From positions 88,763,654 to 88,827,653 of the forward strand of contig OZ023262.1 in assembly GCA_964006375.1 (NCBI GenBank): a stretch of 64,000 nt of DNA, given 5' to 3'. This DNA comes from Tillus elongatus. Taxonomy: Eukaryota; Arthropoda; Insecta; Coleoptera; Cleridae. The notes under the pieces were generated by a model, which was not told the origin of the DNA, made no database searches, and worked only from the letters and a program-made list of their open reading frames with translations. Shown piece after piece: positions 1,013 through 55,132 of this stretch (the stretch's first letter is position 1; the number at the start of each line of letters is the position of its first letter). The position numbers and the translations under genes are program-made.

Positions 1013-2340
1013 CTTTATTAACCTTTGATCAAGTACATACATACTACAGGCACGTCAAAGAATTATAAAAACATAAAATGTCAGTATTCAATAATTACAA
1101 AAACAGAAGTCAAAAATAACAACACCACTTTACATACAGAACCAACTACAAAAATATACAATCAGTTTACATCACACCTAAATTTATAGTTACAACGGTG
1201 CTATTTTTACAGCCATTATCATTCTCTCCGTTGCCCAGGGCCTGTACACATTTCAATAAATTCATGATATGATAAAAAGAATTGTCAACCAAAAATGATT
1301 TCAACCTATGTTTGAAGCAGCTCAGTGTATCCGCAGCCTTAATCTCCTGAGGAAGCATATTAAAATAGAAGCAGCCAGCATACACAGGTGATTTCTTGTA
1401 TGCCATATACTGGTAATTTGGCAAGTGGATGTCATTTCTTGCCCGGGTAGTGTAGCTGTGAACTGCACTGTTTTTAGTAAACCTGTTCCTACGTGCATAT
1501 GTGAAACTCAGGAGTTTATACAAATACACCCCCGTGACAGTCAACAGTTTTTTTGTTTTAAAAGTAGTCCTGTATGATACTTTTTGTCGTAGTCCAAAAA
1601 TCAGGCGGATTACTCGTTTTTTGGCATACGAAAACCCTGTGTATATCATTTGCATGACCACACACTATTATGTTGTATGCCAGCACACTATACACTAAAG
1701 CAAAATACACATTAATTAGAGAAATTGCATTTAAGGTGTTCTTCAGCTTCATGATGCAAAAATAGGCCTTACCCAATTTGTTTGATATACCTTCTATCTG
1801 GATGTCCCATGAGAGCCTATTATCTAAAATGCAACCTAAAAAGTTGGTGGAGGTACTTAAGGCAATATAGTTATCATTAAAATGAAAATTAATATCAATA
1901 GAAGGCTCTCGACATCTTCCCATAAACTCTACACAAACTGTCTTAGAACTATTTACAATCAGGTGATTGCTGCAGCACCACTGACCGAAGTGCGACAAAA
2001 TACTATTCACCTTACGCATAGCATCGGACAATACCGGATCCGGAACTACGATTGCTATGTCGTCCGCGTACATAAACAACCTCCCACCTGTCAGATAGTT
2101 GGGAAGATCATTTACGTACAACATAAACATAAGTGGTCCCAGGACGCTTCTCTGCGGAGCGCCCAGCTTTATTTCATATTCATCAGATTTAACACCGTCC
2201 ACTGAAACTACTAATCGCCTGTCTCTTACAAACGATACAAGCCAATCACTAACAGGTCCCCTAAGTCCGACCGCATTTAATTTTCTTTCGAAGAAATGGA
2301 ATTTGTAACACAATTGTTTTAAAGATACTTGCATTACTTA
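1012..2340 (-). pseudogene. Truncated LINE reverse transcriptase (CR1/Jockey-like)
   Basis: This is the C-terminal half of a non-LTR retrotransposon reverse transcriptase. The upstream reading frame (minus strand, from about 2334) shows the usual RT landmarks: a GAPQRSVLGPL block, then the catalytic FMYADDIA motif, then an NFLGCILDNRLSW block. The following thumb/C-terminal region (KKRVIRLIFGL, then HSYTTRARNDIHLPN) is in another frame, so there is at least one frameshift between about 1600 and 1660. The 5' part (endonuclease and fingers) is missing, a typical 5' truncation. The 3' end abuts a (TA)n array at 1012. The clade assignment rests on motif style only. Confidence 0.8.
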
Positions 2341-6099: not shown

Positions 6100-6820
<721 letters not shown>

Positions 6821-7172
6821 AGTAGATAGTGCGCCACCTGGGACCATCCCCTCCACTTTTTACTGCGCATGCGCGTGACGTCATGCGCATGCGCTGACCT
6901 GCGCAGACCTGTGACAGTTGACAGCTGACCTGTCAGATTTGACAGGTGTCAAATGTCACTGACCTGACAGCTGTCAGCTGTCAGCTGTCAGCTAACCTGA
7001 CAGCTGTCAACGTCAGCTGTCACCTGACCTGACATGTGTCAACGTCAAATGTCACCTGACCTGTCAGATGACGTCACAAGCATTCCAAGATGGCTGACCT
7101 GTAATAGACAGTTGCAACCCGGGTTCTCTCTATGGAACTAACCTGAGATGACGTCACAAGCATTCCAAGATG
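6821..7172 (+). repeat. Left terminal inverted repeat (352 bp)
   Basis: Matches the reverse complement of 16593-16944 at all but one position; the first 282 bp are identical. It contains two GCGCATGCGC palindromes around TGACGTCA (about 6863-6895), then a dense run of GACAGCTGTC, TGACCTG and ACATGTGT-type motifs. Confidence 0.95.
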
Positions 7173-7470
7173 GCTGACCTGTCATAGACAGTTGCAACCC
7201 GGGTTCTCTCTATGGAACTAACCTGAGATGACGTCACAAGCATTCCAAGATGGCTGACCTGTAAGAGACATCTGCAACTCCGGGTTCTCTCTATGGAACT
7301 AACCTGAGATGACGTCACAAGCATTCCAAGATGGCTGACCTGTAAGAGACATCTGCAACTCCGGGTTCTCTCTATGGAACTAACCTGAGATGACGTCACA
7401 AGCGTTCCAAGATGTCTGACCTGTGTGTCCATAGATAGCCACAAGTCAGGTTAGGTATTAACTGTCTTGT
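7067..7470 (+). repeat. 80/81-bp tandem array in the left arm
   Basis: Units start at GATGACGTCACAAG at 7067, 7147, 7227, 7308 and 7389, giving periods of 80, 80, 81 and 81. Each carries TGACGTCA, TTCCAAGATGGCTGACCTG and TTCTCTCTATGGAACTAACC. The right arm has only one full and one partial unit, so the array expanded on the left only. Open reading frames through it are a by-product of the near-81-nt period. Confidence 0.9.
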
Positions 7471-7472
7471 GA

Positions 7473-8640
7473 TGACGTAAGATGTTCCGTCTGACCTGTG
7501 TGTCCATAGATATCTACAAGTCAGGTCTCCATGTGTGTATTTGAAGAATACCATCTGTCTGATTGTTTATTAAGGTTATGTATGTATGTGTTTATTAAGG
7601 TTAGGTGTTCGTATACAGACTGATTACCAAGCCATTTTGATTGTTTATTAAGGTTATGTTTGTATTTGTTGATTAAGGTTATGTTCGTACACACACACAC
7701 TACTGTCTGTATTTGTTTATTAAGGTTATGTTCACACACGTGTTGATTACCAGTCATATGATTGTTTGTTAAGGTTATGTATTTGTTATTTGAATGCAAA
7801 CAGAGATAATACAAGATTGTACTTACATACAACAAGAGACGTCAGCCTTCTTTCACAGCTTAATACACACACTACTGAACAGGTGTCTTCTGTGTTGAGG
7901 ATACAGACAGACAACTGATTGCCATTGTTGAAGCTTATACATGCTGTTTAACAAACACGTCATGACAGTTCAAAGTCTTTGCTTAAACTGACAGATGCAT
8001 GTGTATTTGAAAGAAAAGCATTCGCCTGAACTTAGATTTGAACCCACGAACCTCGAATCAGCCGTTGTTTGCTTTACATATATACACTGTCCCTAAACCA
8101 ATAGCTCCACAGACACACACGTTAAAAGTTTGTTCGCTGTTGTATATATAAAACAAAGCCAGTTGTTGTTTACATATGAGGTTAGGTGTTCGTATACATG
8201 TTGATTACCAATCATCTGATTGTTTAGTAAGGTTATGTTTGTATTTGTTATTTGAATGCAAACAGACATAATAAGAAGAGTGTACTTACATACAGCAAGA
8301 GACGTCATCCTTGTTTCACGACTTAACACATACTGAACAAGTGTCTCTCTTGTATTGAGGAAACAAACTGATGTAAGAGAGAGAGGCCTTACAAAGGATA
8401 AACAACGTTTTACAGTTGTTAACCTTGATCCTGTTTGAGCTTGTCTGTGTATCTGTTTAATATACACAAGAGAGAGGCCCTCTTAAAGGTAAACAACCTG
8501 TCAGTTGATGACCTTGTGTTATATCTGTTCAATAACCCCACATTATTCGTGTTTGAGCTTGTCTAGAATACAGTCATTAGAAGTATGACATCATCCATGT
8601 AAAAACAAATACAGTTTAAAACGGTTACTGTGGGTAACAT
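7473..8640. other. Left subterminal non-coding arm with iterons
   Basis: Holds about seven copies of TTGTTTATTAAGGTTATG or one-base variants, near 7563, 7587, 7640, 7666, 7712, 7762 and 8218. It also holds a diverged direct duplication (the blocks around 7740-7890 and 8190-8350 share TACTTACATACA, GAGACGTCA and GTATTGAGGA/TGTTGAGGA landmarks). No protein-coding frame is credible; those seen consist of the repeats. Confidence 0.75.
8024..8114 (-). other. tRNA-like sequence, left copy
   Basis: On the minus strand, a B-box-like GGGTTCAAATC lies 3' of a degraded A-box region, and the ends GTCTG and CAGGC can pair as in an acceptor stem. The T-stem and anticodon arm do not fold well, so it is not called a functional tRNA. 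The same block, also with tRNA-like boxes, occurs in inverted orientation in the right arm at 15938-16018. Confidence 0.35.
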
Positions 8641-8690
8641 GTATAAATTGGCTACACACAGACACTCTTAAACATATTCACAAGTCAGTT
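8641..8690 (+). promoter_or_regulatory. Putative promoter of the KilA-N gene
   Basis: A TATA box (GTATAAAT, 8641-8648) is followed by a TCAGTT initiator-like sequence at 8685-8690. The spacing of about 45 nt is longer than at the other genes of the element, so the start site is uncertain. Confidence 0.4.
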
Positions 8691-8742
8691 GTTGTTGAGA
8701 AAAGACTTACTGCAGTTTGTTCTAACCCAAATCTGTTTTAAA

Positions 8743-9678
8743 ATGGCTACATTAAGTGATGTGTGTTACCAACAAATTAAAGACAACTTCTGGTATGGTC
8801 TATTTGGAGATTTTCAACTTATTATCGATAAGAACACTGGCTATTTTAATGCAACTAAACTGTGTAAAACTAGTAATAAAAAATTATATCATTGGATGGA
8901 AAATAAGAAAACTAAAGAGTTGATTGCCTATTACAACAGTCGGCTGAAGGAACAATTGGGTTATCGGAATACCGAAAAGCCAAATATTCCAACCGAAGGA
9001 GCCCACTTAGAGTCGCTTCCAAAGGGTCGAAATACTAATACCCTAAAAACGGACGCAGCATCTCAAGTAACACCAGCAACAGCTACATACGTATTAAACA
9101 TTGGTGGAGCGCTCGCTGAAAACGACACGATATCTGGTACATATGTGTGTAAAGATTTGATAGTAAATTTGGCTTGCTGGATATCCAATCAGTTCTATGA
9201 CAAATGCAACCAAATTATTTTTGATTTTTTCCTAAACGAATTTGATCAGAAATACAAGGACAACCTAGATGCGATTGAAGTAAAATTAATGGAGATAAAT
9301 GATGAGGTGCAACGTATGCGAGAAACAAATGCTAAAGTCACAGAATATCTTGAAGATATATCCCCAAAGCCAAGTAACCTGGGAAAAATAAGTGTGTTTG
9401 GTTTACTTGCAAGAAACGAGACAGGCGCCCCCTATCCATATCATGCTGTAAGAACACAAAAGAAAAGTTTCCCCAGGGCTGTGAGGAACTTTAAAAATAA
9501 ACACCCCAACGCCCAAGTGATCCTAAACAAGCTGTACGATCCAAATGTAGTAAATCTCTTTAACAGAATAAAGACTGAAGTGAAATACCTTACAGCACAT
9601 AGAAACAACCTACATATAGCTGATGTAGCACAAGATAAGTTTGTTCAGGATATTATTGCTTTAAGACATACTTTTTAA
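8743..9678 (+). CDS. KilA-N domain DNA-binding protein
   Basis: Predicted 311-residue protein. I place the start at ATG 8743 (context AAAATGG); the open frame extends 18 codons upstream without an ATG. The N-terminal part (about residues 16-55) has the KilA-N signature: an aromatic/Gly-rich strand, then GYFNATKLC, then a HW motif. KilA-N proteins of large DNA viruses and their mobile relatives bind DNA. The C-terminal third (about 220-311, from SVFGLLARN) resembles the DUF3627/MSV199-type C-termini found with KilA-N in insect DNA viruses. A short coiled-coil-prone stretch (about 185-205) lies between. It is the only plus-strand gene in the left half of the element and converges on the DUF8207-like gene. 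It may regulate element genes or bind the iterons; that role is inference. Confidence 0.8.
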   Translation: MATLSDVCYQQIKDNFWYGLFGDFQLIIDKNTGYFNATKLCKTSNKKLYHWMENKKTKELIAYYNSRLKEQLGYRNTEKPNIPTEGAHLESLPKGRNTNTLKTDAASQVTPATATYVLNIGGALAENDTISGTYVCKDLIVNLACWISNQFYDKCNQIIFDFFLNEFDQKYKDNLDAIEVKLMEINDEVQRMRETNAKVTEYLEDISPKPSNLGKISVFGLLARNETGAPYPYHAVRTQKKSFPRAVRNFKNKHPNAQVILNKLYDPNVVNLFNRIKTEVKYLTAHRNNLHIADVAQDKFVQDIIALRHTF

Positions 9679-9689
9679 TTGTATTACAA

Positions 9690-9695
9690 AATAAA
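9690..9695 (+). terminator. Polyadenylation signal AATAAA for the KilA-N gene
   Basis: AATAAA lies 11 nt past the stop codon. The minus-strand signal of the converging gene (TTTATT at 9720-9725) is only about 25 nt away, so the two transcripts end face to face. Confidence 0.7.
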
Positions 9696-9720
9696 AACAC
9701 ATTAATTTTAACAAAGACTT

Positions 9721-9843
9721 TTATTTGATTCTAAGTACAAGTATGTAAACTCTTTGTTGGAATACATTTATAGAATTATTAACATTAGATGGTTCAGTGT
9801 TGCGTTGGTGCTGTTGTTGTTGTTGTCGTCGGTGTCTCTTCAT
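9721..9843 (-). CDS. Possible 40-residue basic protein
   Basis: An ATG at 9843 opens a 41-codon frame beginning MKRHRR followed by a short glutamine run and ending with a hydrophobic-basic tail. Its TAA stop is part of the AATAAA polyadenylation signal, the same economy seen at the end of the PX-like gene. It starts 13 nt after the stop of the DUF8207-like gene and would be on the same transcript. No homologue is recognised and it could be chance. Confidence 0.3.
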   Translation of the reverse strand: MKRHRRQQQQQHQRNTEPSNVNNSINVFQQRVYILVLRIK

Positions 9844-9856
9844 GGCTGTGGGCTTA

Positions 9857-10981
9857 CTAGGTGATAACACTAGCTTCTTTTAGTTCTTCCAAGATTGACT
9901 GAATTTCGTTGTTATGAGCAGTATTACCTGCAACTTGGGAAGCCACTAAAAGTCTAAGTCTGTCAACCAACTCGTTTATGTCATTCCAATACACATAGGC
10001 TATTTGTTTGTTATTTTGTATCATATAGTTGTTGGTGCTGATGTTGTTTGGGCTCATGCCGTTGCTATCGCTGCTCTTATCACTCTGAGTTTTAAGTTCA
10101 GTCTTTTGTTTTTTGTTAAGATGTCTGTCGGTGCTGTCGTCATCGTCTTCCTCGTAGGTGTAACCAAAACCTTGAGGAGTTGAGGATCTACGGCCTCGTG
10201 GATTTATCACTGGTTTTATTAAAGTCAGATACTTTTCAGAGGAACAACCCTTGGTTCGGGCGTTAGGATCATAGTTCATTTTATAAACACTAGTTGCTTC
10301 TAGAATATCTCTATAGTGTTGAAGATCGTCATAAGTATACCCCTGGGGTCTTTTCATAAATAACAATTCTAGCAAACCTTGTGTTTGCGGGTATCTCCTT
10401 TGGCCCAGTTGAATCTCAGCATCGGTAAAGTCTAAGTGTTTGTTACCAAGACTCCAGCTACCGGTATCTTTAGCGTAGCGGGCACCATACGTTTGATCAA
10501 TGGTACCGAGCCTTGGTGGTTCAGTAAAATACTTGTCTACATAATATCGAACTCGGTCAGGATATTGCTCCAAAAATTCTTGATATGCAGGGTTGGTTGT
10601 GACAGTTTGTAGGTCGGCCTCAAGCTCTTCAAATGTTGGGATATCCTCATCGGAACTTGCCGCCTCAGCCTCTTCCCTTGGTTCAGCTTCAAAAACTTCA
10701 TGATCTTTAAGGAACTGTACTTGGGGTTTCGTTTCTGGTATATCGACTTCGTCTTTGATTTGTTCAGCCTTTAGTGGTTGCGGTGGCTGCTGCTGCTGCA
10801 GTGCTGCTGTGTTTTTAGATATTTCACTTAGGGGGTCAACAAGTGGTTTATATAAACGTTGCAGAGCATCATCATTCTCAGCTCTGTTAAGTTTAAGCAT
10901 TAAATGTTTTTTTCGAATATTGTCAGCAAGTTGTAAAATCCTTTTCTTAACTTTTTGCTCTTCCTTACCCAACACTTCCAT
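9857..10981 (-). CDS. DUF8207-like protein of Polinton-type elements
   Basis: Predicted 374 residues, start ATG at 10981. Residues 1-60 are basic and helical; 61-125 are Gln/Pro- and then acidic-rich and probably disordered. Residues about 164-257 form the recognisable core: YGARYAKDTGSWSLGNK, then RRYPQTQGLLELLFMKRPQG, then DLQHYRDIL and KYLTLIKPVI. I match this from memory of the family to DUF8207, which occurs in many arthropod and cnidarian proteins linked with Polinton-like elements and whose biochemical function is unknown. An acidic stretch (EEDDDD, 277-282), a KKQK basic patch and a helical tail (329-370) follow. Its own TATA/initiator lies at 11061-11096. A structural or DNA-associated virion role is possible but not shown. 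Confidence 0.72.
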   Translation of the reverse strand: MEVLGKEEQKVKKRILQLADNIRKKHLMLKLNRAENDDALQRLYKPLVDPLSEISKNTAALQQQQPPQPLKAEQIKDEVDIPETKPQVQFLKDHEVFEAEPREEAEAASSDEDIPTFEELEADLQTVTTNPAYQEFLEQYPDRVRYYVDKYFTEPPRLGTIDQTYGARYAKDTGSWSLGNKHLDFTDAEIQLGQRRYPQTQGLLELLFMKRPQGYTYDDLQHYRDILEATSVYKMNYDPNARTKGCSSEKYLTLIKPVINPRGRRSSTPQGFGYTYEEDDDDSTDRHLNKKQKTELKTQSDKSSDSNGMSPNNISTNNYMIQNNKQIAYVYWNDINELVDRLRLLVASQVAGNTAHNNEIQSILEELKEASVIT

Positions 10982-11060
10982 TGTGCTACAACTGTTTGGT
11001 GTTACCAGCAGGTCTAATCATTTGTTTGAGCGATACAGGTTGTGTGGTGGTTTAACATAT

Positions 11061-11096
11061 ACTGACTCCGTTACGGTACATGCCTTCTTATTTATC
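11061..11096 (-). promoter_or_regulatory. Promoter of the DUF8207-like gene
   Basis: On the minus strand GATAAATAA (11088-11096) is followed 31 nt later by the initiator TCAGT (11061-11065), the canonical arthropod spacing. The transcript leader would be about 80 nt. Confidence 0.65.
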
Positions 11097-11111
11097 ACGA
11101 TGTCCGGCTGT

Positions 11112-11520
11112 CTTGTTAGACAGCTGTGTTAGACAGCTGTCTGTTAGACAGCTGTGTGTTAGACAGCTGTGTGTTAGACAGCTGTCTGTTAGACAGCTGT
11201 CTGTTAGACAGCTGTGTGTTAGACAGCTGTGTGTTAGACAGCTGTGTTAGACAGCTGTGTTAGACAGCTGTGTGTTAGACAGCTGTGTGTTAGACAGCTG
11301 TCTGTTAGACAGCTGTGTGTTAGACAGCTGTCTGTTAGACAGCTGTGTGTTAGACAGCTGTCTGTTAGACAGCTGTCTGTTAGACAGCTGTGTGTTAGAC
11401 AGCTGTGTGTTAGACAGCTGTGTGTTAGACAGCTGTATGACAGCTGTATGACAGCTGTATGACATCTGTGTTAGACACCTGTATGACATCTGTGTTAGAC
11501 ACCTGTGTTAGACAGCTGAC
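11112..11520. repeat. GACAGCTGT minisatellite (about 21 units of mostly 15 nt)
   Basis: Units read GTGTTAGACAGCTGT or CTGTTAGACAGCTGT, with a few 13-nt versions and degenerate ATGACAGCTGT/GACACCTGT units at the end. The AGACAGCTGTCT core is palindromic and matches GACAGCTGTC in the TIRs. Long open frames on both strands are artefacts of the 15-nt period. It separates the DUF8207-like gene promoter from the end of the ATPase gene. Confidence 0.95.
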
Positions 11521-11537
11521 TGTCCTGTCTATCATTG

Positions 11538-12233
11538 TTAGAATAATATATATCTATCGAATCCTTTTCTATATCGACCTTTGTGTACATCGTTTTCCTT
11601 CACAATCACCAACACACCATACTTATTATCTTTCCAGCATTGGTGGCAGATAGTTTTAAATTGTTTAAAGTCCATATCGGTGGTTACATGATCGTCGTAC
11701 ACATGTTTTAAATTGGTTTCATCTTGCTTGAATAACACAATAACATTGGTGTTGTCACGTACCAGATGCTTGGGTATTCGTGTATATGTTTGACAGAGAT
11801 AGAATGAATCAATATTCTTATGTCTGCCCATACTGAAGTATGCTCTTATTTTATCTTGTTTGTCACAAGCTACATCATCAAATATAAACACAGAGTTGTC
11901 CTTGGCATCTGCCGGATCTAATATTTCATCGTTTTCTCTATAAGGATAGTAACCAACACCTTTTGTTGCATTCATCACCTCCTTTAACATCTTGTATTTC
12001 GGTTGATACAGAGACTTTGAATACACATACACGTTATCAAATTTTAAACCGTTTGCTTCAAACAATAAACTCAGCATGACATTAGTTTTACCACAACCAC
12101 TCGGACCACATATGATACAGCGAACGGTGTTTGGAAAGAGAGGACCATGCCTCAGTTGTTGTTGAGCTGTGTCCGTAACAACATCGTCTATATTTGTAAT
12201 GGGTAAGGCAGAAGCGTGTTTGCTGGTACGCAT
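11538..12233 (-). CDS. A32/FtsK-HerA-like DNA packaging ATPase
   Basis: Predicted 231 residues from ATG at 12233. A Walker A motif GPSGCGKT lies at residues 43-50, a Walker B strand SVFIFDD at 114-120, a sensor-like Gln in YLCQTY (145-150) and an Arg at 159. This order and length fit the genome-packaging ATPases of Polintons, virophages and other double-jelly-roll viruses, which use ATP hydrolysis to translocate DNA into the capsid. The reading frame is intact with all catalytic positions present. The 5' end is divergent from the PX-like gene, sharing an intergenic region of about 160 bp. The 3' end abuts the GACAGCTGT minisatellite. Confidence 0.88.
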   Translation of the reverse strand: MRTSKHASALPITNIDDVVTDTAQQQLRHGPLFPNTVRCIICGPSGCGKTNVMLSLLFEANGLKFDNVYVYSKSLYQPKYKMLKEVMNATKGVGYYPYRENDEILDPADAKDNSVFIFDDVACDKQDKIRAYFSMGRHKNIDSFYLCQTYTRIPKHLVRDNTNVIVLFKQDETNLKHVYDDHVTTDMDFKQFKTICHQCWKDNKYGVLVIVKENDVHKGRYRKGFDRYILF

Positions 12234-12271
12234 CTTAACTTAAACTAAACTATATTTTATTTGGGTGTGTA

Positions 12272-12306
12272 TATATAAATGAATGCAAGTGAGACACCCA
12301 GTCAGT
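12272..12306 (+). promoter_or_regulatory. Promoter of the PX-like gene
   Basis: TATATAAAT (12272-12280) is followed by TCAGT (12302-12306) with about 31 nt between the TATA box and the initiator A. The reverse strand of the same TATA-rich block could serve the divergent ATPase gene, but no initiator is clear there. Confidence 0.65.
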
Positions 12307-12392
12307 ATGCATGTTGGTGTCACAGAGTGAGGGTTGTTATTAACAAAGACAGATACAGGTTTTGCTGAAACGTTGCTAGCGTTACAAACACC

Positions 12393-12902
12393 ATGAAAGT
12401 TAACAGAAAACTTGATGAGGGGTTTTATGTAATCAACTCGAAGCCAAAGAAGAAGGTCCCCTTTAAAAACATACTAAGTCTGATTGAGGAAGTTATAAAA
12501 GATAGAAACCTTATTCCAACAGCGAACGCCGTGTTTGATATAGCTCATACAATCGTTAGAAACATTGGTGGACGTAAGAATGTGCAGAAACCTCGAGTTA
12601 TTCCAATACCTAAAAGTGGAGGCTTCCTTCCGCTGTTGCCTCTTATATTTGGTGGGCTGTCAGCACTAGGAGCTCTGGGTGGCGGTGCTGCAGGTATTGC
12701 CAAAGCCGTGAACGATGCCAAGTCTGCGAAACAGAAACTAGAGGAGGAAGAACGACACAACAAAACAATGGAAGCCATCGCGATGGGTAGGAGAGGGAGT
12801 GGCTTGAAATTTAAGCCAAAATGCAAGAGACTGGGCAAAGGCATGTATCTCAAGAAACAGCGCTACGGTTATGGGTTGTATCTGCAAAAACCAATGCAAT
12901 AA
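12393..12902 (+). CDS. PX-like small hydrophobic/basic virion protein
   Basis: Predicted 169 residues. A basic N-terminal half is followed by a Gly/Ala/Leu-rich hydrophobic segment (about 77-105, containing GGFLPLLPLIFGG and GALGGGAAGIAKAVN), a short charged helix (106-130) and a very basic tail (135-165) rich in Lys, Arg and Tyr. This layout matches the adenovirus pX/mu-like minor virion proteins encoded beside capsid genes in adintoviruses and Polintons. Such proteins are thought to condense DNA or act on membranes. It is first in a tight plus-strand block with the penton-like and capsid genes. Its TAA stop overlaps AATAAA (12898-12903). The assignment rests on composition and position rather than a strict motif. 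Confidence 0.65.
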   Translation: MKVNRKLDEGFYVINSKPKKKVPFKNILSLIEEVIKDRNLIPTANAVFDIAHTIVRNIGGRKNVQKPRVIPIPKSGGFLPLLPLIFGGLSALGALGGGAAGIAKAVNDAKSAKQKLEEEERHNKTMEAIAMGRRGSGLKFKPKCKRLGKGMYLKKQRYGYGLYLQKPMQ

Positions 12903-12933
12903 AAGACTGAAACAGTAGCCTGTGTGTATCAGT
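12898..12933 (+). promoter_or_regulatory. Fused stop codon, AATAAA and TATA box; promoter of the penton-like gene
   Basis: AATAAAAG at 12898-12905 contains the PX-like gene's stop codon TAA (12900-12902), a polyadenylation signal and an ATAAAAG TATA-like box. TCAGT follows at 12929-12933, 31 nt from the TATA T to the initiator A. The next ATG is at 12935, so a transcript from this site would have a leader of only about 4 nt. Confidence 0.5.
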
Positions 12934-12934
12934 C

Positions 12935-13645
12935 ATGGCGCACACCTTTGTGTTGAAAGACCGCAGCTCCCATCTGTCGTCAGACTACCATCCACCAATT
13001 GTTTTGGATGGTAATTATGCTGTTGCCTTGATAGGCTTTCACACCTACAACAACATACCCAACATCTATGAAGGTAAAAACAAATTTCATGTAAAAGAAG
13101 GAACCGGTTGGCGAACCATCACGATACCCACCGGTGCTTATGAAATAACACACTTGGAAGAGTTACTTCAAAATGAACTTGTTGGTGCTACAGCAACACA
13201 CGAACAAAAGCAACAGGCTCTGATTCTGAGACCTAATCCGAACACCATCAAATGCAGACTAAAGTGTTATACAAATGTCAGTTTTGAATTTGATGGTTCG
13301 ATTGGGCGAATGTTGGGTTTTTCAAAACAAGTTCTTCAGCCGGACACCTTTTATGAATCTGATTTACCTGTTGATATAGTGGATGTTAGACAGATTCGCA
13401 TCGAAACCAATATCGTGTCTGGTTCCTATTATAACGGACAACCCTCACATACGCTGTATGAGTTTGCTCCGATGGTTGATCCTGGCTACGCAATCGACAT
13501 AGAACCTAAAAATTTAATTTACTTGCCGGTGAACAAGCAAGAGATTTCCAATATAAGCATCGACATCGTCGACCAAGATTCAGTTCCTGTCAACTTTCAA
13601 GGTGAAGAGGTGTCTGTTCGCTTGAAACTTATAAAAGTTGCTTAG
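12935..13645 (+). CDS. Penton-like minor capsid protein (predicted single jelly roll)
   Basis: Predicted 236 residues, beta-rich, no signal peptide or membrane segment. Conserved-looking segments are YAVALIGFHTYNNIPN near residue 30, TITIPTGAYEI near 65, IGRMLGF near 128 and IVSGSYYNG near 165, ending NLIYLPVN. These are typical of a protein family found with double-jelly-roll capsid genes in invertebrate Polinton-like elements, generally taken to be the penton (vertex) protein. It lies 32 nt after the PX-like gene and before the major capsid gene, matching the morphogenesis module order of such elements. The frame is intact. The penton role is from family knowledge and position. Confidence 0.68.
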   Translation: MAHTFVLKDRSSHLSSDYHPPIVLDGNYAVALIGFHTYNNIPNIYEGKNKFHVKEGTGWRTITIPTGAYEITHLEELLQNELVGATATHEQKQQALILRPNPNTIKCRLKCYTNVSFEFDGSIGRMLGFSKQVLQPDTFYESDLPVDIVDVRQIRIETNIVSGSYYNGQPSHTLYEFAPMVDPGYAIDIEPKNLIYLPVNKQEISNISIDIVDQDSVPVNFQGEEVSVRLKLIKVA

Positions 13646-13646
13646 T

Positions 13647-13808
13647 ATGTTGGTCTTTAAGGATATAAAAGCAAGTGCATCTACCACATCAAATTCAGTT
13701 GAGTCAGACACGTCAAAGGGTACGCTTCGTCCCGATAATATTGAGTTCCTGCAAAGCCTGGGTTATCATGTCGTCAAAACTAGAAATATTCAAAGAACCC
13801 GTGTTTGA
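13647..13808 (+). CDS. Possible 53-residue ORF bridging the penton-like and capsid genes
   Basis: The ATG at 13647 lies one base after the TAG of the penton-like gene, and the frame overlaps the first 41 nt of the capsid gene in another phase. It is Ser/Thr-rich and ends in a segment containing FLQSLGYHVV. The capsid gene's TATA box lies inside it, so only read-through transcripts would carry it whole. It may be a small conserved protein expressed by reinitiation, or chance. Confidence 0.3.
   Translation: MLVFKDIKASASTTSNSVESDTSKGTLRPDNIEFLQSLGYHVVKTRNIQRTRV
13664..13699 (+). promoter_or_regulatory. Promoter of the capsid gene
   Basis: TATAAAAG (13664-13671) followed by TCAGT (13695-13699), about 31-33 nt apart. 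The leader to the capsid ATG at 13768 would be about 70 nt. Confidence 0.65.
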
Positions 13809-14973
13809 TGATGGCATCGATCGAGAAGAGCTGCGCTCTTACTATTCACCAACTAAATCGTTTGGTAACAGCGATGAAATTGAAATAGCCATCAACCAAC
13901 AAGATGCGTTCGTATGTCTGGCCGAGTCAGCTCTAATAATCGAAGGTGCTCTGGAACCTGTAGCAATCCAAAATGCCACTGGTGCTTGTTATCTGTCAAA
14001 TAATGGAGGAGCAGCTCTGTTTGAATCAATGACCTATGAGTTAAATAACAAGGAAGTGGAACGAGTGCGAGACCCATACACCACAACCATCATCAAAAGT
14101 CTGCTATCGTTCAGTAAGAATGAAGCCCAATCTCTTAGCAACGCCGGTCTGAATGTGTCGTCGGAGCACATCACCTTAAATGATAACAAGTTTCACATGC
14201 TCATACCTGTCTGGTTCCTCTTCAGTTTCTTTCATCATTTCAAAGGAGTTCTCTGTGGCAAACATACTTTCCGCTTTACAAGAAGTCGAAACGATTCCAA
14301 TGGCTATTACAGCACAGGTACGGCACGAGCAAAAATTACCGTAACCAATATGTTTTTAAAGGTAAAACATGTCTTTCCCAATGATAAAATGAAATTGGAA
14401 CTGATGGATAAAATAGCCAAAGACACCTCTATATTTCTCGCCTACCGCAAATGGGACATATACGAGTTACCAGCACTCAGAGATATCAACAGAGATGTGT
14501 GGGCTGTTAAAACTGCAACCAACTTGGAAAGACCTCGATATGTGATTATAGCATTTCAAACAGATCGTAAGGATAACGTGAAGAAGAGGTCAGACTATTT
14601 CGATAACATTGGTATGATGGACCTTCGAGTGTTTCTAAATTCAGAATGCTACCCTTATGAATCTATGAATATGGATTTTGAGAAATCGAAATATGCAGAA
14701 GCCTATAACATGTATACAGATTTTCAAAAAAGCTTCTGTTATAAAAACATGTCGGAGCCTATCTTGAATTATGACGAGTTTAAAGACAGAGCTCTATTTG
14801 TGATTGACTGTCAGCACCAGAACGAGTCAATCAAGTCTTCAACGGTGGACATTAAGGTGGAGTTTATGAGTCACGCCAACTTCCCAAAAAATACTCGTGT
14901 TTATTGTCTGGTTATTCATGACAGTGTAATGGAATATAAACCTCTAACGGGCATCGTTAGAGCCATTATGTAA
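13768..14973 (+). CDS. Double-jelly-roll-like major capsid protein
   Basis: Predicted 401 residues. I choose ATG 13768 because the upstream open frame has no ATG. The protein is beta-rich and lacks a signal peptide. Segments around ERPRYVIIAFQTDR (about residues 254-267), DLRVFLNSECYPYE (about 285-298) and the C-terminal CLVIHDSVMEYKPLTGIVRA are typical of the DJR-like domain family of invertebrate Polinton-type elements (Pfam DJR-like, from memory). These form the hexagonal capsomers of icosahedral particles in related viruses. At about 400 residues it is somewhat short for the group. The frame is intact. It ends the plus-strand block after the PX-like and penton-like genes and is followed by AATAAA at 15021. 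It could be a diverged cousin rather than an orthologue of classic Polinton capsid proteins. Confidence 0.75.
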   Translation: MSSKLEIFKEPVFDDGIDREELRSYYSPTKSFGNSDEIEIAINQQDAFVCLAESALIIEGALEPVAIQNATGACYLSNNGGAALFESMTYELNNKEVERVRDPYTTTIIKSLLSFSKNEAQSLSNAGLNVSSEHITLNDNKFHMLIPVWFLFSFFHHFKGVLCGKHTFRFTRSRNDSNGYYSTGTARAKITVTNMFLKVKHVFPNDKMKLELMDKIAKDTSIFLAYRKWDIYELPALRDINRDVWAVKTATNLERPRYVIIAFQTDRKDNVKKRSDYFDNIGMMDLRVFLNSECYPYESMNMDFEKSKYAEAYNMYTDFQKSFCYKNMSEPILNYDEFKDRALFVIDCQHQNESIKSSTVDIKVEFMSHANFPKNTRVYCLVIHDSVMEYKPLTGIVRAIM

Positions 14974-15020
14974 TAATTGTATGTCATTTATGTATCAATA
15001 TGTACAACTTAATTAATCCT

Positions 15021-15026
15021 AATAAA
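15021..15026 (+). terminator. Polyadenylation signal of the capsid gene
   Basis: AATAAA 48 nt after the stop codon, followed by a T-rich stretch and a TTGTTTTATTTT block. Confidence 0.65.
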
Positions 15027-15937
15027 TTTTTATTGTATGTAAAACAGTTGTTTTATTTTTATTTTGTTGCATTTTTATTAACCCCTTTCTGTCTGTCAGT
15101 CTAAGCAAAGACTTCGAGCTGTCATGACGTGTGTGTTAAACAGCTGTACAAGCTCAAACAAGATTATCTAAGATACTTGTTGGGCAATCAATTGTCTGTC
15201 TTTTATTACACAGCTCTGTCAGTCTAAGCAAAGACTTCGAGCTGTCATGACGTGTGTGTGTGTGTTAACAATCAACAACAGCGTCTATATGTTTTGTTTG
15301 GTTCAAGTGGATGTCATTAAACAACTGTGTTATTTCTATAACGGGGCCCCATTCAAGACCTCAACATACGTTAGTGTGTACTAAGCCGTGAAACAAGTAT
15401 GACGTCTCTTGCTGTATGTAAGTATACTATTATATTATTTATGTTTACATACAAACAATACTTATCAAACAATCCTCGTATATCAAAGTTTAATTTAGTT
15501 GTTTTAAATTGAGTTTTGTTACTTGTGTGTTTTTGATCACTCCCTATATAAATTTAGATTCATTCATTCAAAATACAAACACACTAACATAAACAAACAC
15601 GCCGACAATAAAACCAAGTCCCCGAGTTTTATTGCGCTATTAAAATAAACTCATTAACATATCTAGATGTAAATACGTTTTTCTTATTGATATAGTTTAC
15701 TTCAAACGTTTTTTGTTATTAAATGATATTAGATAGGTAAATTGGTACGTGTTTTAAATTTCTTTTTACTATAAATAAACAATTGTTTTTTAAATTACAG
15801 TTCCTATTATTCAATTGGAATGTAATAGAGATACACCCCCTGCCTACACACACACAAACTCAGCAGCCTCATAAACTCGTTTTATGTAACAGGTTTTTGT
15901 TTTATATATACCCACTGATAACAAACTTTCATCGTAT

Positions 15938-16018
15938 GTCTGAATAGCATAATCGGTTTAGCGACGTTTGCATATCTTAGTAAGTTGTATGGTTGGGGGT
16001 TCAAATCTAATTTCTGGC
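15938..16018 (+). other. tRNA-like sequence, right copy
   Basis: A consensus-matching A box TAGCATAATCGG (15945-15956) and a near-consensus B box GGTTCAAATCT (about 15999-16009) are spaced as in a tRNA gene. The ends GTCTGAA and TTCTGGC pair with one mismatch and one G-U. The D-stem and T-stem have several mismatches and no clean anticodon arm forms. The inverted counterpart is at 8024-8114. It may be a tRNA relic or a Pol III-type signal retained in both arms. Confidence 0.4.
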
Positions 16019-16149
16019 GAATGCTTTTCTTTCAAAAATCATATTTCAAATTAAATTCAAAATTTCAAATTACCCGCTCAATATATCTTCCTCATATATG
16101 TATGTGTGTGTGTGACTAAACCGAATGACTGTGTCCAACAGATGTCTCC

Positions 16150-16214
16150 CATCGAGCTAGAGAATATTCTCTACACTCTACAACTTTACAAATAGAATAT
16201 TCTCTAGCTCGATG
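16150..16214. repeat. Perfect 21-bp hairpin
   Basis: CATCGAGCTAGAGAATATTCT (16150-16170, written CATCGAGCTAG then AGAATATTCT) is repeated in perfect inverse orientation at 16194-16214 around a 23-nt loop. Flanking GTGTCCA and TGGACAC extend the palindrome imperfectly. The stem contains the self-palindromic AGAATATTCT. Confidence 0.9.
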
Positions 16215-16338
16215 AGTCATATCTCTGGACACAACAGACAGAAATTTTCAAACAAATTCAAATTTCCCGCCAAAAACGAAATACCCTAACAAACTTCAAT
16301 ACACCTTAACAACAACACAATAAACAAACCAAACAGCT

Positions 16339-16535
16339 GTGTTTACGAACATAACCTTAATAAACAAAATACACCTTAACAACACAATAAACAAACAAAC
16401 AGCTGTGTTTACGAACATAACCTTAATAAACAAAATACAAAACATAACCTTAATAAACAAACAGATGCATGGTAATCAACACGTGTGTGAACATAACCTT
16501 AATAAACAAATACATAACCTTAATAAACAATCAGA
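16339..16535 (-). repeat. Right-arm iterons
   Basis: Five copies of CATAACCTTAATAAACAA at about 16350, 16416, 16443, 16492 and 16513. These are the reverse complement of the left-arm iteron, so the repeats point inward from both ends. Confidence 0.85.
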
Positions 16536-16592
16536 CAAACACACATGGAGAGCTAACCTGACTTGTAGATATCTATGGACACACAGGTCAGA

Positions 16593-16944
16593 CATCTTGG
16601 AATGCTTGTGACGTCATCTCAGGTTAGTTCCATAGAGAGAACCCGGGTTGCAACTGTCTATGACAGGTCAGCCATCTTGGAATGCTTGTGACGTCATCTG
16701 ACAGGTCAGGTGACATTTGACGTTGACACATGTCAGGTCAGGTGACAGCTGACGTTGACAGCTGTCAGGTTAGCTGACAGCTGACAGCTGACAGCTGTCA
16801 GGTCAGTGACATTTGACACCTGTCAAATCTGACAGGTCAGCTGTCAACTGTCACAGGTCTGCGCAGGTCAGCGCATGCGCATGACGTCACGCGCATGCGC
16901 AGTAAAAAGTGGAGGGGATGGTCCCAGGTGGCGCACTATCTACT
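16593..16944 (-). repeat. Right terminal inverted repeat (352 bp)
   Basis: Reverse complement of 6821-7172 with one mismatch (A/C at the position matching 7103). Ends CACTATCTACT directly before the duplicated GACCCT. Confidence 0.95.
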
Positions 16945-17035
16945 GACCCTTTCTCCGATTCTTTGGCAGTAGTTTTATTTAGGTTTACGGTTTAATGGTC
17001 TATAAGTTTACTTCCACATCGTCACAACGTGTGGA
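16945..17035 (+). repeat. Right target duplication and remainder of repeat A copy A2
   Basis: GACCCT at 16945-16950 is the right target duplication. The sequence then continues repeat A (TTTCTCCGATTCTTTGGCAG, AGGTTTACGGTTTAATGG) exactly where the left part broke off at 6820. Confidence 0.85.
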
Positions 17036-19926: not shown

Positions 19927-21440
19927 TTAAACAACGAGTCTGTCTAGCTGATTTACGTTGGCAGAAGACTGATGAATTATATATGCATTTATTGAACATA
20001 TATCCACAAATCTATAAAACATAGCCATAGGCCAACGTTGTGTTCTTCTGCTACAGCAATATTTACTGCATTTTTCATCTACAGCATCCACTCCAGATTT
20101 TGTATTATTATAATAGGCATTAATTTGAGTCAAACCGTTATCATCCTGTATGCAGTGATGCATCGAAGGAATCATGATAACAGCTCTATTTTTCTTTGAT
20201 TCTCTAGAAATCAATGTTTTATTACTTGTAAAGCCATACAATGTAGATACCACCTGTCTTGTTTTTGAGGGTAAAAATTTCTTGGGTATTTTACGTTTTT
20301 TTTATAGTTTCAACGTAAATAAGTTTATTTTTGATGAGATAGTCTGTAAGCTCTATTAAGGAGTACCAATTATCAGCGGTAATGTTTCTGTTGCTTCCAA
20401 ATATAGGCTTACAAAGACGAATAACAGCTTGTGCTGGAATAGTGAACCGTTTTTCTTCATCTGTAACATCTTTTAATGAATCAGTGCCCTTGCCACAGTA
20501 AATATATGTATTATATATGTAGTGGGTTCGAGCGTCAACAAGACATTGAACTTTTAACCCATATTTCACGGGTTTGCTCGGTAAATACATTTTAAATTTA
20601 CACCTGCCCCTGAAGGCGAACAACATTTCATCCACAGTTGCATTAGCTCCCAACGAGTAAGCTGATTGTGAATGTCTATTAAATTTTTCATAAATATGTG
20701 AAATCGCTGCAGCTGGATCCGTTTTTACTCTTAAAATTCTTTCCTCGTGGGTATCGAACCCTAGGCAAGTTAACAAAACAGCAAATCTTTTTGCTGACAC
20801 TACTAGCCGAAAAATTTCCCGGCCAGTTCCGTCTGTTGAAAAAATTGATTCAATAGCCTCGGTATTAGATTTAAAAGCAGCAGTTAATAATAAAAGTCAC
20901 AGAAAACCATTTATTTCAACAGAATTTGTTTCCATGTATTCTCTGCGATTTTGACTGCCTGATGACTTATTACGAAATTCTTGAATTTTCAAATTTGTTT
21001 AATGTACAACGATATCTAGTATATCTTGTGAGAAAAATTTCAGCCATGCATTCACCGGTTCAATTTTTGGCAAAGTACCTTTATTTCCTGTCAACTTCAA
21101 TATATTGCGAGCTGGTGTTCTTACCTTTCGGGTTGGTTCAGTGGCAGCCCATGTATATCTGTTTTTTCCATAGAAATATTTCTTAACTCTATCAATTGTG
21201 TCATTATCCTCTTCGCTTGCAGTAACTTGCATCTTATCTTGGTCATCAGATTCACTGCCGGAAAGTTCACTAGCTGTTTCGTGATCACTTGTGATAGCAT
21301 TATCAGTAGTAATATTTCTATCAGGATCACCATCTTGGTCTGACAACTCTGTGTCACATTTTTCAAACCATTTTAGCACAGTTTCCTCAAAGTTAGGATC
21401 TGTAGTTCTGACTTTTTTGGATTGTCGAACATAAATACTA
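19927..21440 (-). pseudogene. PiggyBac-like transposase, decayed
   Basis: On the minus strand an acidic N-terminal region (about 21379-20999; multiple Asp/Ser/Glu, then a VKKYFYGKNRYTW segment) is followed by the DDE_Tnp_1_7 catalytic region (20800-20291: VDEMLFAFRGRCKFKMYLP, KPVKYGLKVQCLVD, ITADNWYSL with a catalytic Asp) and the C-terminal part (20253-19927: NTKSGVDAVDEKCSKY, RRTQRWPMAMFY). The first two blocks share a frame but are separated by a stop between 20801 and 20998. The last block is in another frame. At least two lesions, so inactive. TTAA-flanked ends were not identified. Confidence 0.85.
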
Positions 21441-23325: not shown

Positions 23326-23424
23326 CAATGCACTATTATTCCACTAGATTTAAATTGGAAATACCAGTGACGTATTCCCGCTTCACTCTCTGATTGGTCT
23401 AGACTTATTATGCAACCGCTTTAA

Positions 23425-23445
23425 TATATAAACCTTGGTCAGTGA
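23425..23445 (+). promoter_or_regulatory. TATA box upstream of the F-box gene
   Basis: TATATAAA at about 23425-23432 and TCAGTG at 23439-23444, only about 16 nt apart, so not the canonical pair. The coding start at 23502 follows closely. Confidence 0.35.
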
Positions 23446-23501
23446 CAACGCATCTAGCGTGTCATTTTGACAGAAAGTCTAAATCCTTGCGACAATTTGT
23501 A

Positions 23502-24771
23502 ATGTTAGAGAAATCAAGCACAAGTTATAATGATAGTGACAAGAGCAACGATGATTCAACAAGTTCATCTAAAAGCAAATCAAAATTAAATACCTTTCAA
23601 GAGCTACCAGAAAAAATTCTGGTGAAAATATTTAAGAACTTCAGCAAAAACGAACTAACACGTTCCGTACTTCCAGTCTGTCAAACTTGGAAACATGCAG
23701 CGCTCAACCCTTCCCTATGGAAAACACTCGTGGCTGGAAAACAAATACCGACAAAGGAGATATGCCAGAAATTAAGACGCTTCACAGAACTAGAAAGTCT
23801 TTCCTTAAAAGAAATCTCCAATCCAACGCAAGTATTAAGACAAATAACTCTTTGCAGCAAGAACTTGAAAGAACTTACCATAAGATATTGTTATGGTGTC
23901 AAAGAGCAAACACTAAGAAATTTAATTCACGTCTGCAATAATCTAGAAAAGCTCGACCTGAAAGGAACCGAGTTTAAAGGTATGAAATTTTACCAAGACT
24001 TGCTTAAATTAAAAAAAAAAACTCAAATCGATTAATCTTAGTGGAAACAAGCAGTTAAAGAAGCAAAATATTCTCACGGTGGTGCTGAACTGCCATTGTC
24101 TAGAAGAATTTATCTTATGCAATAACAGTACAATTGCTGAAATGACTGAAACCGAATGGAGCTTTCTAATACGATCAATGTCGGCCAATTTGAAGTCAAT
24201 ATGCATTGACGCCTCAGCCATCGGTAACCACACGTTTCACGCCATAATAGAATGCCCTCACATTGAGGCTATAGGTTTCTGTGGTGCTTATAACCTGAGT
24301 AGTGATGTATTTGAGAAAATGAGCGAATATCCAATAGAGCTAACGACGCTTAAACTCAGATTCGCCCATTTGATTGATGGTCACAACATTAGGGAAGTGT
24401 TTACCGCAAACGATATGAGCAAGCTGAAGGTATTAGACCTGACGGGTTGCTGGAAAATAACAGATGTTGCAATGGCTGCAATAGCCACTTGTATCAATCT
24501 TGAAAGGCTCATTCTGAAGAACTGCAAGCGCATTACTAATCTGCGGCCAATACTTGAAAACTGCCTGGAAATTAATCAGCTGAACGTTGCGTTTTGTGAT
24601 AGATTGGATATTGATGAAACAGTGCTAAAACTTCCTAAGCTAAAAGAGCTATATGTAAATGAAGAACTAAAATTTTGTGATATATTGGGTGCGATTATAT
24701 CGGAAAGGCTGGACATCAAAGTAAATATTTGTTTATCTGAATACAACAAACAATATAAGTGCTTTAATTGA
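23502..24771 (+). pseudogene. F-box/leucine-rich-repeat protein gene with a frameshift
   Basis: The start is ATG 23502. A Ser/Asp/Lys-rich N-terminus is followed by an F-box (FQELPEKILVKIFKNF...NPSLWKTL, about residues 32-75), the part that binds Skp1 in SCF ubiquitin ligases. Leucine-rich repeats of the cysteine-containing type follow, for example LEKLDLKGTEF and, in the second frame, LKVLDLTGCWKITDVAMAAI. The frame breaks at an A11 run (24011-24021): frame 1 ends at 24035, while the repeat-consistent reading continues one base over to a stop at 24769-24771. Removing one A would restore a single intronless frame. So it is a recent pseudogene, a homopolymer sequencing error, or (less likely) a programmed shift. 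It lies between inverted copies of repeat A, suggesting retrocopy or transposon cargo. Confidence 0.8.
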
Positions 24772-54225: not shown

Positions 54226-55132
54226 AAAAATTTTTTTGCAAATGGCAATGTCTTTCCATTCACTAAAAATATGTTTGGATATATATAAATATCTATATTT
54301 AATAGTGCTAGATAGAAAGAATTGAAGATGTTATTTTTGTTTACCTGTTAAGATTTTGAATAAGAAATGAATATGTTATCATCGACTTGCCCTGTTCAAT
54401 AAGGGATACTCCTGAAAATTCAACTGACAGATCCCCAACGAAATCACAAGTTGTTTGCTAGGCCTCCAATAAGTGCTTTCAAACGAGTTGAAACTTTGTG
54501 GTAAATAAGTTATTTTATTTCCGTAATATTGTTCACCTTGTGTTAACCATTGAATATTTAGAAATAAGTATCTGTGTGGGAAGAACGATGATGAAATTAA
54601 AAAGTGTTTTCAGATAACTCTAATCACAAAAATGTATTTACCTGTAACGTTACTAGTAAAATAATTCTACTCTGATTTAAAAACAATAGAATATTTCAAA
54701 GTTTACGCGAACTAACAAACGGGATTTTATTTTCGTTAGATTAAATACACCTGTTACAACATTTCCCGAAACCTTGTTCAGAAGTTTACCTTTGTTGCCC
54801 TAATTTTTCGTTTTACTTTAACTCCGAGACTTAAAGCTATGAGCACATAAAGCAACTCAAGCCAGACGACATACAGCACGGAAAGAAGTAAACATTTTAT
54901 AGAGGTGTCACGGGAATAGTTCACCCAGCGGCAGTCCACGTCTCCCTGAACAATTTCTGTAGAGTTGCAGTGCAGTAAATACAAGTTCTGATTGCTGCGG
55001 GATTCTCGTACGGAGCCTGCATTTAGTTGCTTTTCGCTCCTCTAGATACCAACACATATCAGACGTGATAGCTAAACGTTGTATAAGTGAAGGCGGATGA
55101 AAAAATAATGCTGCCAAATCAAGCAGAACAAC
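54226..55132. other. Non-coding stretch
   Basis: No gene recognised. Minus-strand frames at 54778-54984 and 54908-55144 have a hydrophobic stretch but no recognisable domain. Confidence 0.45.

What the first reader, a model, noticed from the sequence alone, without database searches (positions are those of the whole stretch)
6821..16944. A compact Polinton-like element with capsid and packaging genes but no polymerase, integrase or protease
Seen: exact ends, a 6-bp duplication and intact ATPase, DJR-like capsid, penton-like, PX-like, DUF8207-like and KilA-N genes. Every open frame of size in the 10.1 kb is accounted for; none has PolB, rve integrase or adenain motifs. Known: Polintons encode PolB and integrase and are usually 15-20 kb. 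Inference: a virion-forming satellite that borrows replication and integration from a helper, the reverse of the usual non-autonomous transposon, which loses capsid genes. This is the best candidate for an undescribed system here.
Basis: partly seen in the sequence, partly recalled or inferred. Interest (0 to 1): 0.92.

Follow-up and report, generated by a model that had tools for sequence, protein, structure and literature searches.

The report
Capsid-only member of split Polinton
A 10-kb virus-like element in what is probably an insect genome carries only shell-building genes, while relatives with the same ends carry the DNA polymerase or the integrase on separate elements, so the parts of one virus appear to be split over three kinds of mobile element.

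Summary
Window 6821-16944 is an intact 10,124-bp element (362-bp TIRs, duplication GACCCT) with KilA-N, DUF8207, packaging ATPase, a small protein, penton and double-jelly-roll capsid genes, and no trace of polymerase or integrase. It is one of many: its genome (1.72 Gb) holds 1,228 matching termini and at least 97 unbroken copies of this capsid gene. Same-ended elements that were read fall into three types. C (about 8-11 kb, the window's) has capsid genes only. A (about 17.5 kb) has the integrase and its own, 39%-identical capsid set, but only an N-terminal stub of PolB. B (about 17.5 kb) has PolB and KilA-N, with no capsid or integrase found. Of 23 terminus pairs with one exact 30-nt end, 12 are C-sized, 8 hold PolB, 3 hold capsid A plus integrase; none holds both enzymes. 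No scored integrase (0 of 128) lies within 25 kb of a scored PolB (120). C is therefore not an internal deletion of any element found. Virions and trans-action are inferred.

The parts
6815..6820 (.). target-site duplication GACCCT, left copy
16945..16950 (.). target-site duplication GACCCT, right copy
6821..16944 (.). complete type C element, 10,124 bp
6821..7182 (+). left terminal inverted repeat, 362 bp
   Evidence: 99.4% to right arm
16583..16944 (-). right terminal inverted repeat, 362 bp
7066..7424 (+). 81-bp tandem repeat, 4.5 copies, starting inside the left TIR
6821..8601 (.). left end shared with type A and B elements (about 77-92% DNA identity in the main blastn pieces)
8689..9678 (+). 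KilA-N + DUF3627 protein (329 aa by mechanical start); 87% identical copy in type B; deleted in 3 of 7 C copies that reach it, window included
9857..10981 (-). DUF8207 (PF26634) protein, 374 aa, function unknown
11114..11506 (.). tandem arrays: 15-bp unit TGTTAGACAGCTGTG (11114-11436) and 11/24-bp derivatives, rich in CAGCTGTC, upstream of the DUF8207 gene
11538..12233 (-). packaging ATPase (Pox_A32-like), 231 aa
   Evidence: 78% identical to type A ATPase
12393..12902 (+). 169-aa small protein with a hydrophobic Gly-rich stretch and basic C-terminus; type A homologue has an extra PLA2-like domain
12935..13645 (+). penton protein, 236 aa
13675..14973 (+). double-jelly-roll major capsid protein (432 aa by mechanical start)
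   Evidence: Pfam PF21738 2.5e-77; 97 of 97 scored genomic copies have no stop
15193..16944 (.). non-coding right end shared with type A and B elements (79-92% DNA identity in the main blastn pieces)

Best explanation
The element is type C of a Polinton (Maverick) family whose functions are divided among three element types with common termini. SHOWN: types A, B and C share TIR ends, flanking non-coding ends and 6-bp target duplications; gene contents of the copies read are complementary; each type has many young copies with unbroken genes among those scored. INFERRED: PolB made from B copies replicates all three from the shared TIRs; integrase made from A copies inserts all three; the packaging ATPase, penton and capsid proteins of C (and a diverged set from A) form particles that carry any DNA with these ends, so the elements spread as a mutually complementing, multipartite virus-transposon. 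KilA-N, present in B and in many C copies, probably binds repeats in the element (candidate: CAGCTGTC) and regulates it; this last step is a guess.
For: (1) 1,228 termini within 3 mismatches of the first 30 nt, control 0. (2) The 100 listed termini give 41 pairs: 29 of 7.5-11.5 kb, 10 of 17-20 kb, one of 118 bp, one of 29 kb; 18 termini stay unpaired. (3) For one exact 30-nt terminus the list of 51 places is complete: 23 pairs; all 11 large ones hold either a scored B-type PolB (8) or capsid A + integrase (3), none both; 12 are C-sized, 4 of them with a scored C capsid gene. (4) PolB is PF03175 3.4e-37, integrase is rve 2.8e-12 with a weak chromodomain. (5) Linkage: 91 of 97 capsid A genes have integrase within 25 kb (median 5,748 bp); 0 of 97 capsid A and 0 of 128 integrases lie within 25 kb of any of 120 PolB places; 0 of 97 C capsid genes have integrase within 15 kb; 2 of 97 have PolB within 25 kb, both parted from it by a C terminus, one being a C element nested in a B element. 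(6) Six-bp duplications for one A, one B and four C elements. (7) No stop in: C capsid 97 of 97, PolB 42 of 43, integrase 122 of 128, capsid A 96 of 97 scored places. (8) Fewer replacement changes than random in C: penton+ATPase+169-aa gene 18 synonymous / 7 replacement, p 9e-8; capsid 17/12, p 9e-6. (9) Gene losses shared by several C copies with identical breakpoints (169-aa gene in four, KilA-N in two), as expected if products act in trans.
Against: No particle, transcript or trans-activity was observed. Searches score only the best candidates, so a rarer complete element with more diverged genes could have been missed; 37 of 128 integrases had no scored capsid A within 25 kb. Of the 29 small pairs, 6 hold a scored C capsid gene and 5 more were partly read and are C by content; 18 are C by size only. 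The PolB stub in A was read in two A copies only. Other PolB families exist (77 scored places) and could also serve. About 6 kb of tandem arrays in B are unexplained. No maturation protease was recognised. The selection test pools changes shared by descent; 8 of 11 capsid copies had been chosen for capsid score; short spacers near the capsid core are also little diverged (8 and 12 mismatches per kb), so low divergence there partly reflects a recent spread of that region, not coding constraint alone. The nested C's duplication TATATA lies in a TA repeat and is weak.
Confidence: 0.6

Rival explanations
1. A complete autonomous Polinton or adintovirus with the C-type capsid exists or recently existed (exogenous, or unsampled in this genome); A, B and C are parallel deletion and recombination derivatives mobilised by it, without needing each other.
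For: Remnants look like losses from a complete ancestor: A keeps a PolB N-terminal stub (41-42% over about 127 aa) and, in one copy, a KilA-N fragment. Searches list only top-scoring copies. Complete elements with PolB and integrase are the textbook form (PMC6431247, passages).
Against: No scored PolB lies near any scored integrase (0 of 128 within 25 kb); in the one fully listed terminus variant 0 of 11 large pairs hold both enzymes. C and A capsids are only 39% identical, so C is no deletion of A.
Confidence: 0.28
2. C is an ordinary non-autonomous DNA transposon; its capsid genes are passengers no longer used.
For: It lacks the enzymes of mobility; some C copies have lost KilA-N, the 169-aa gene or part of the ATPase and still moved. 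One of 13 penton copies has a stop. Low divergence of the core may be recent spread rather than constraint.
Against: 97 of 97 scored capsid genes have no stop (best-scoring places only); replacement changes are depleted in capsid, penton, ATPase and 169-aa genes.
Confidence: 0.08
3. C is a one-way parasite (satellite) of A+B, giving nothing back: the A capsid suffices and C capsids package C alone, as virophage-like competitors.
For: A has a full capsid set of its own including a PLA2-like domain that C lacks; the C-sized class is the largest (29 of 41 pairs).
Against: B has no capsid gene found and must use that of A or C; B and C share KilA-N besides the ends, which suggests that B and C travelled together.
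Confidence: 0.25

Closest known systems
Polintons / Mavericks (Eupolintoviridae) and adintoviruses
   Same: DJR capsid, penton, packaging ATPase, long TIRs, 6-bp duplications; the family as a whole also has PolB and rve integrase.
   Different: Here no element found carries PolB and integrase together; the window element has neither and is 10 kb.
Polinton-like viruses (PLVs) and 'meldviruses' lacking PolB and integrase
   Same: Capsid module without rve integrase or PolB. PMC4642659 (passages) suggests that integrated PLVs without integrase could use that of resident Polintons in trans; PMC11071296 (passages) reports genomes with adenovirus-class virion proteins and no recognisable PolB or integrase.
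   Different: PLVs mostly encode another replication protein (PMC11071308, passages); none is seen in C. Partners with identical termini are identified here in the same genome.
Virophages (mavirus)
   Same: Penton fold close to mavirus penton, tied with a PBCV-1 chain; presumed dependence on another element.
   Different: Mavirus encodes its own PolB and integrase (recalled) and depends on a giant virus (recalled); a giant virus was not looked for here.
Multipartite viruses, incl. segmented bidnaviruses
   Same: Genes for replication and capsid on different molecules with common ends. Up to twelve segments are reported for some bidnavirus-like viruses (PMC11071296, passage). Theory predicts multipartite genomes from complementing cheats (PMC10159356, passages).
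   Different: Here the parts are integrated dsDNA elements, with a capsid module in two of three parts; the searches made list no such Polinton.

Membership tests
Polinton/Maverick | DJR major capsid, penton and packaging ATPase | tested here: met
Polinton/Maverick | terminal inverted repeats of hundreds of bp and 6-bp target duplication | tested here: met
Polinton/Maverick | protein-primed family B polymerase in the element | tested here: not met
   no trace in window element; catalytic PolB found in type B only
Polinton/Maverick | rve integrase in the element | tested here: not met
   present in type A
Polinton/Maverick | adenain-like protease | tested here: inconclusive
   no Pfam protease of that kind in the C, A or B proteins scanned and no convincing motif; a diverged protease is not excluded
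Polinton/Maverick | size 15-20 kb | tested here: not met
   10,124 bp; 29 of 41 pairs 7.5-11.5 kb
Internal-deletion derivative of a same-TIR autonomous element | remaining genes near-identical to those of a larger same-TIR element that also carries PolB and integrase | tested here: not met
   capsid 39%, penton 48-49%, DUF8207 37-40% identical to type A; no element with both enzymes among those scored
Multipartite virus | complementary genes on separate molecules with shared cis-acting ends | tested here: met
   that the shared ends are cis-acting is inferred
Multipartite virus | parts packaged in separate virions and all needed for infection | not testable with these tools
   no virion or infection data
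Virophage / satellite virus | propagation shown to need a helper's replication functions | not testable with these tools
   inferred only from gene content
Polinton-like virus (PLV) | PgVV-type MCP and an own replication protein | not tested
   MCP falls in PF21738 with insect homologues; no comparison with PgVV was made

The most novel reading that the evidence does not exclude
A multipartite Polinton in an animal genome: replication (B), integration (A) and two alternative capsid sets (A, C) lie on three element types that share termini and complement each other in trans, a natural end state of the cheater route to multipartite viruses, caught as a genomic record of hundreds of copies.
Probability: 0.5. 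Interest if true: 0.92.

Novelty: new variant of a known kind. Interest (0 to 1): 0.82.

Why it matters
Polintons have been read as self-sufficient virus-transposons. A family in which no element found holds both PolB and integrase, yet each type is young, numerous and largely unbroken among scored copies, would show how such viruses split into cooperating parts, and would make trans-complementation, packaging specificity and the cheater theory of multipartite viruses testable from genome sequence. It also warns that annotators who require PolB plus integrase will miss whole families.

Tried and rejected

Paper searches for prior description: (listings with titles and abstract starts; passages of nine papers); none of what I saw describes a Polinton with split functions, but most subscription papers, and Starrett 2021 (not held), were not seen.
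Full report
WHAT IS THERE. Window 6821-16944 is bounded by 362-bp inverted repeats with two mismatches and flanked by GACCCT on both sides. Six genes have open frames: KilA-N/DUF3627, DUF8207, packaging ATPase, a 169-aa small protein, penton and DJR capsid. The penton model matches virus pentons; mavirus is best by Foldseek and tied with a PBCV-1 chain by VIA. Capsid relatives (70 with E <= 0.001) that bear names include proteins from beetles (Sitophilus, Onthophagus, Phaedon, Zygogramma) and ants (Monomorium, Vollenhovia), 53% identity at most over all 70.

COPIES. The window lies in a 1.72-Gb assembly of 30 contigs. The capsid gene was scored at 97 places, all printed as 100% identical and without stops; this is a lower bound, as only best candidates are scored. 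The first 30 nt of the terminus occur 607 + 621 times within 3 mismatches, the control pattern never. The 100 listed termini form 41 plus/minus neighbour pairs under 40 kb: 29 of 7.5-11.5 kb, 10 of 17-20 kb, one of 118 bp, one of 29 kb. Of the 29, 6 hold a scored C capsid gene, 5 more were partly read and hold C genes (L019-L023), 18 are known by size only. The 29-kb one has C-type capsid and penton genes near its right end and duplication CACATC, so it is probably a C element with an insertion.

THREE TYPES. Parts of nine large and six small elements were read first, more later. Type A: matrixin/hemopexin protein, several unknown ORFs, capsid, penton, a protein homologous to the 169-aa one with a PLA2-like domain (PF08398, 1.8e-12), ATPase, DUF8207, integrase (rve 2.8e-12, weak chromodomain), and a 277-aa ORF matching about 127 residues of the PolB N-terminus at 41-42%, read in two copies. 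Type B: KilA-N (87% to the window's), two unknown ORFs (226 and 139 aa), PolB (PF03175 3.4e-37), then about 6 kb without ORFs of 120 aa, rich in tandem repeats. No capsid or integrase was found by tblastn (E < 0.01) in ten stretches assigned to B, of which L017 was assigned by its arrays only. Type C is the window's. All share the ends: element bases 1-1781 and 8373-10124 align to A and B ends at about 77-92% in the main blastn pieces, and B also shares the KilA-N region. By contrast A and C core genes differ: capsid 39%, penton 48-49%, DUF8207 37-40%, 169-aa 62%, ATPase 78% amino-acid identity over full-length matches.

LINKAGE. Positions of 97 C capsid genes, 97 A capsid genes, 128 integrases, 43 B-type PolBs and 77 further PolBs were compared (recounted). 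A capsid with integrase within 25 kb: 91 of 97. A capsid with any PolB: 0 of 97. Integrase with any PolB: 0 of 128. C capsid with integrase: 0 of 97 within 15 kb, 1 of 97 within 25 kb (21.8 kb, not followed up). C capsid with PolB within 25 kb: 2 of 97. In one, the C element (9,791 bp) is nested inside a B element; its duplication TATATA lies in a TA repeat and is weak. In the other, a C terminus lies between capsid gene and PolB. All lists are capped at best-scoring places. For the exact terminus with GGGCCC the list of 51 places is complete; 23 pairs: 8 B, 3 A, 12 C-sized (4 with a scored C capsid), none with both enzymes scored; 5 termini unpaired. So the same 30-nt terminus occurs on all three types.

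MOBILITY. Six-bp duplications were read for one A (ATGGTA), one B (TACTCA) and four C elements including the window's. The flanks of a second B, in a rearranged region, did not match.

SELECTION AND RECOMBINATION. Seventeen C stretches, the window's own copy (L008) among them, were compared with the window. Pooled distinct codon changes: penton 5 synonymous/3 replacement, ATPase 7/3, 169-aa 6/1, capsid 17/12; fewer replacements than random in each (p 0.016 to 9e-6; first three pooled 9e-8). One penton copy of 13 has a stop. Eight of the eleven capsid copies, the window's among them, came from the capsid search, a bias. DUF8207 and KilA-N were not testable this way (no gapless copies). Mean mismatches per kb against the window: capsid 4.3 (10 copies), penton 3.4 (12), ATPase 4.0 (4), 169-aa 9.0 (5), two short spacers 8 (7) and 12 (6), DUF8207 22.7 (6), right non-coding 31 (7), KilA-N 90 (3). 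The contrast thus follows position in the element as well as coding. The KilA-N of two other C copies is 94-95% identical to that of B and about 87% to the window's. This looks like recombination between B and C ends around a recently spread capsid core. Shared deletions: the 169-aa gene with identical breakpoints in four stretches and larger deletions in two more, of 15 that reach it; KilA-N in 3 of 7, two with the same breakpoint.

POLB. The PolB gene runs over two frames in B. The second starts before GKFGQREN after TTTTTCTCTCTATTGTTTCAG; a break at the same motif with a weaker acceptor-like site occurs in two other PolB families. An intron is the simplest reading. One B copy has a continuous 1,281-aa frame; its element has B genes and ends otherwise.

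HOW IT LIKELY WORKS. The shared ends are the only long sequences common to all three types, so they should hold origin, integrase site and packaging signal (inference). PolB from B, integrase from A and capsid from A or C would then serve all three. Gene loss within C fits trans-supply. Capsid genes kept under selection argue for particle transmission, the argument made for vertebrate Mavericks (PMC8097293, passages).

NOVELTY. Elements without PolB and integrase are known (PMC11071296, PMC4642659, passages), use of a resident Polinton's integrase in trans was suggested (PMC4642659, passage), and bidnavirus-like viruses with up to twelve segments are known (PMC11071296, passage). I found no description of a Polinton whose PolB and integrase lie on different TIR-sharing elements (searches).

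LIMITS. One genome; capped scoring; other PolB families examined only in seven 5-kb flanks; no transcripts, virions or assays. A complete helper is not excluded.

Noticed in passing
G000, e.g. C5:117391400(+)/117403353(-), C4:101722449(+)/101735531(-): Further PolB families (77 scored places, none within 4 kb of a B PolB). Eleven PolB pairs lie within 25 kb of each other, nine of them in inverted orientation 7.7-16 kb apart; seven 5-kb flanks of four size classes showed no capsid gene and no Polinton integrase (one weak integrase match sits in a retrotransposon-like ORF). Possibly palindromic PolB-only elements.
   Followed up: partly
L015:1772-3475, L009, L028: Type A carries a matrixin + hemopexin metalloprotease gene (Peptidase_M10 7.3e-27), perhaps captured from a host.
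   Followed up: partly
L016:3247-4071: Type A homologue of the 169-aa protein has an N-terminal PLA2-like domain (PF08398, 1.8e-12), as in parvovirus capsids (recalled), missing from C.
   Followed up: partly
window 6821-16944: Octamer CAGCTGTC occurs 48 times in the element and 2 times in the other 53.9 kb of the window, mostly in the TIRs and the central array; tandem repetition makes the counts non-independent. Candidate KilA-N site.
   Followed up: partly
window 6821-7424: The left end holds ATGACGTCAC, TGCGCATGCGC and CAAGATGGC motifs that resemble CRE, NRF1 and YY1 sites (names recalled), as if the ends doubled as promoters.
   Followed up: no
G000:C1:274002296-274002413: A 118-bp unit made of little but two termini: a miniature derivative of the family.
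   Followed up: no
G000:C7:96699557-96748723: C element, B element and a second C element nested in the B, apparently with a local duplication.
   Followed up: partly
window 1558-2337, 20291-20896, 53791-54330: Other mobile elements: reverse transcriptases (RVT_1) and a DDE_Tnp_1_7 transposase fragment (piggyBac type, recalled).
   Followed up: no
window 23403-24771: F-box plus leucine-rich-repeat gene over two overlapping frames, perhaps a host gene or a processed copy.
   Followed up: no
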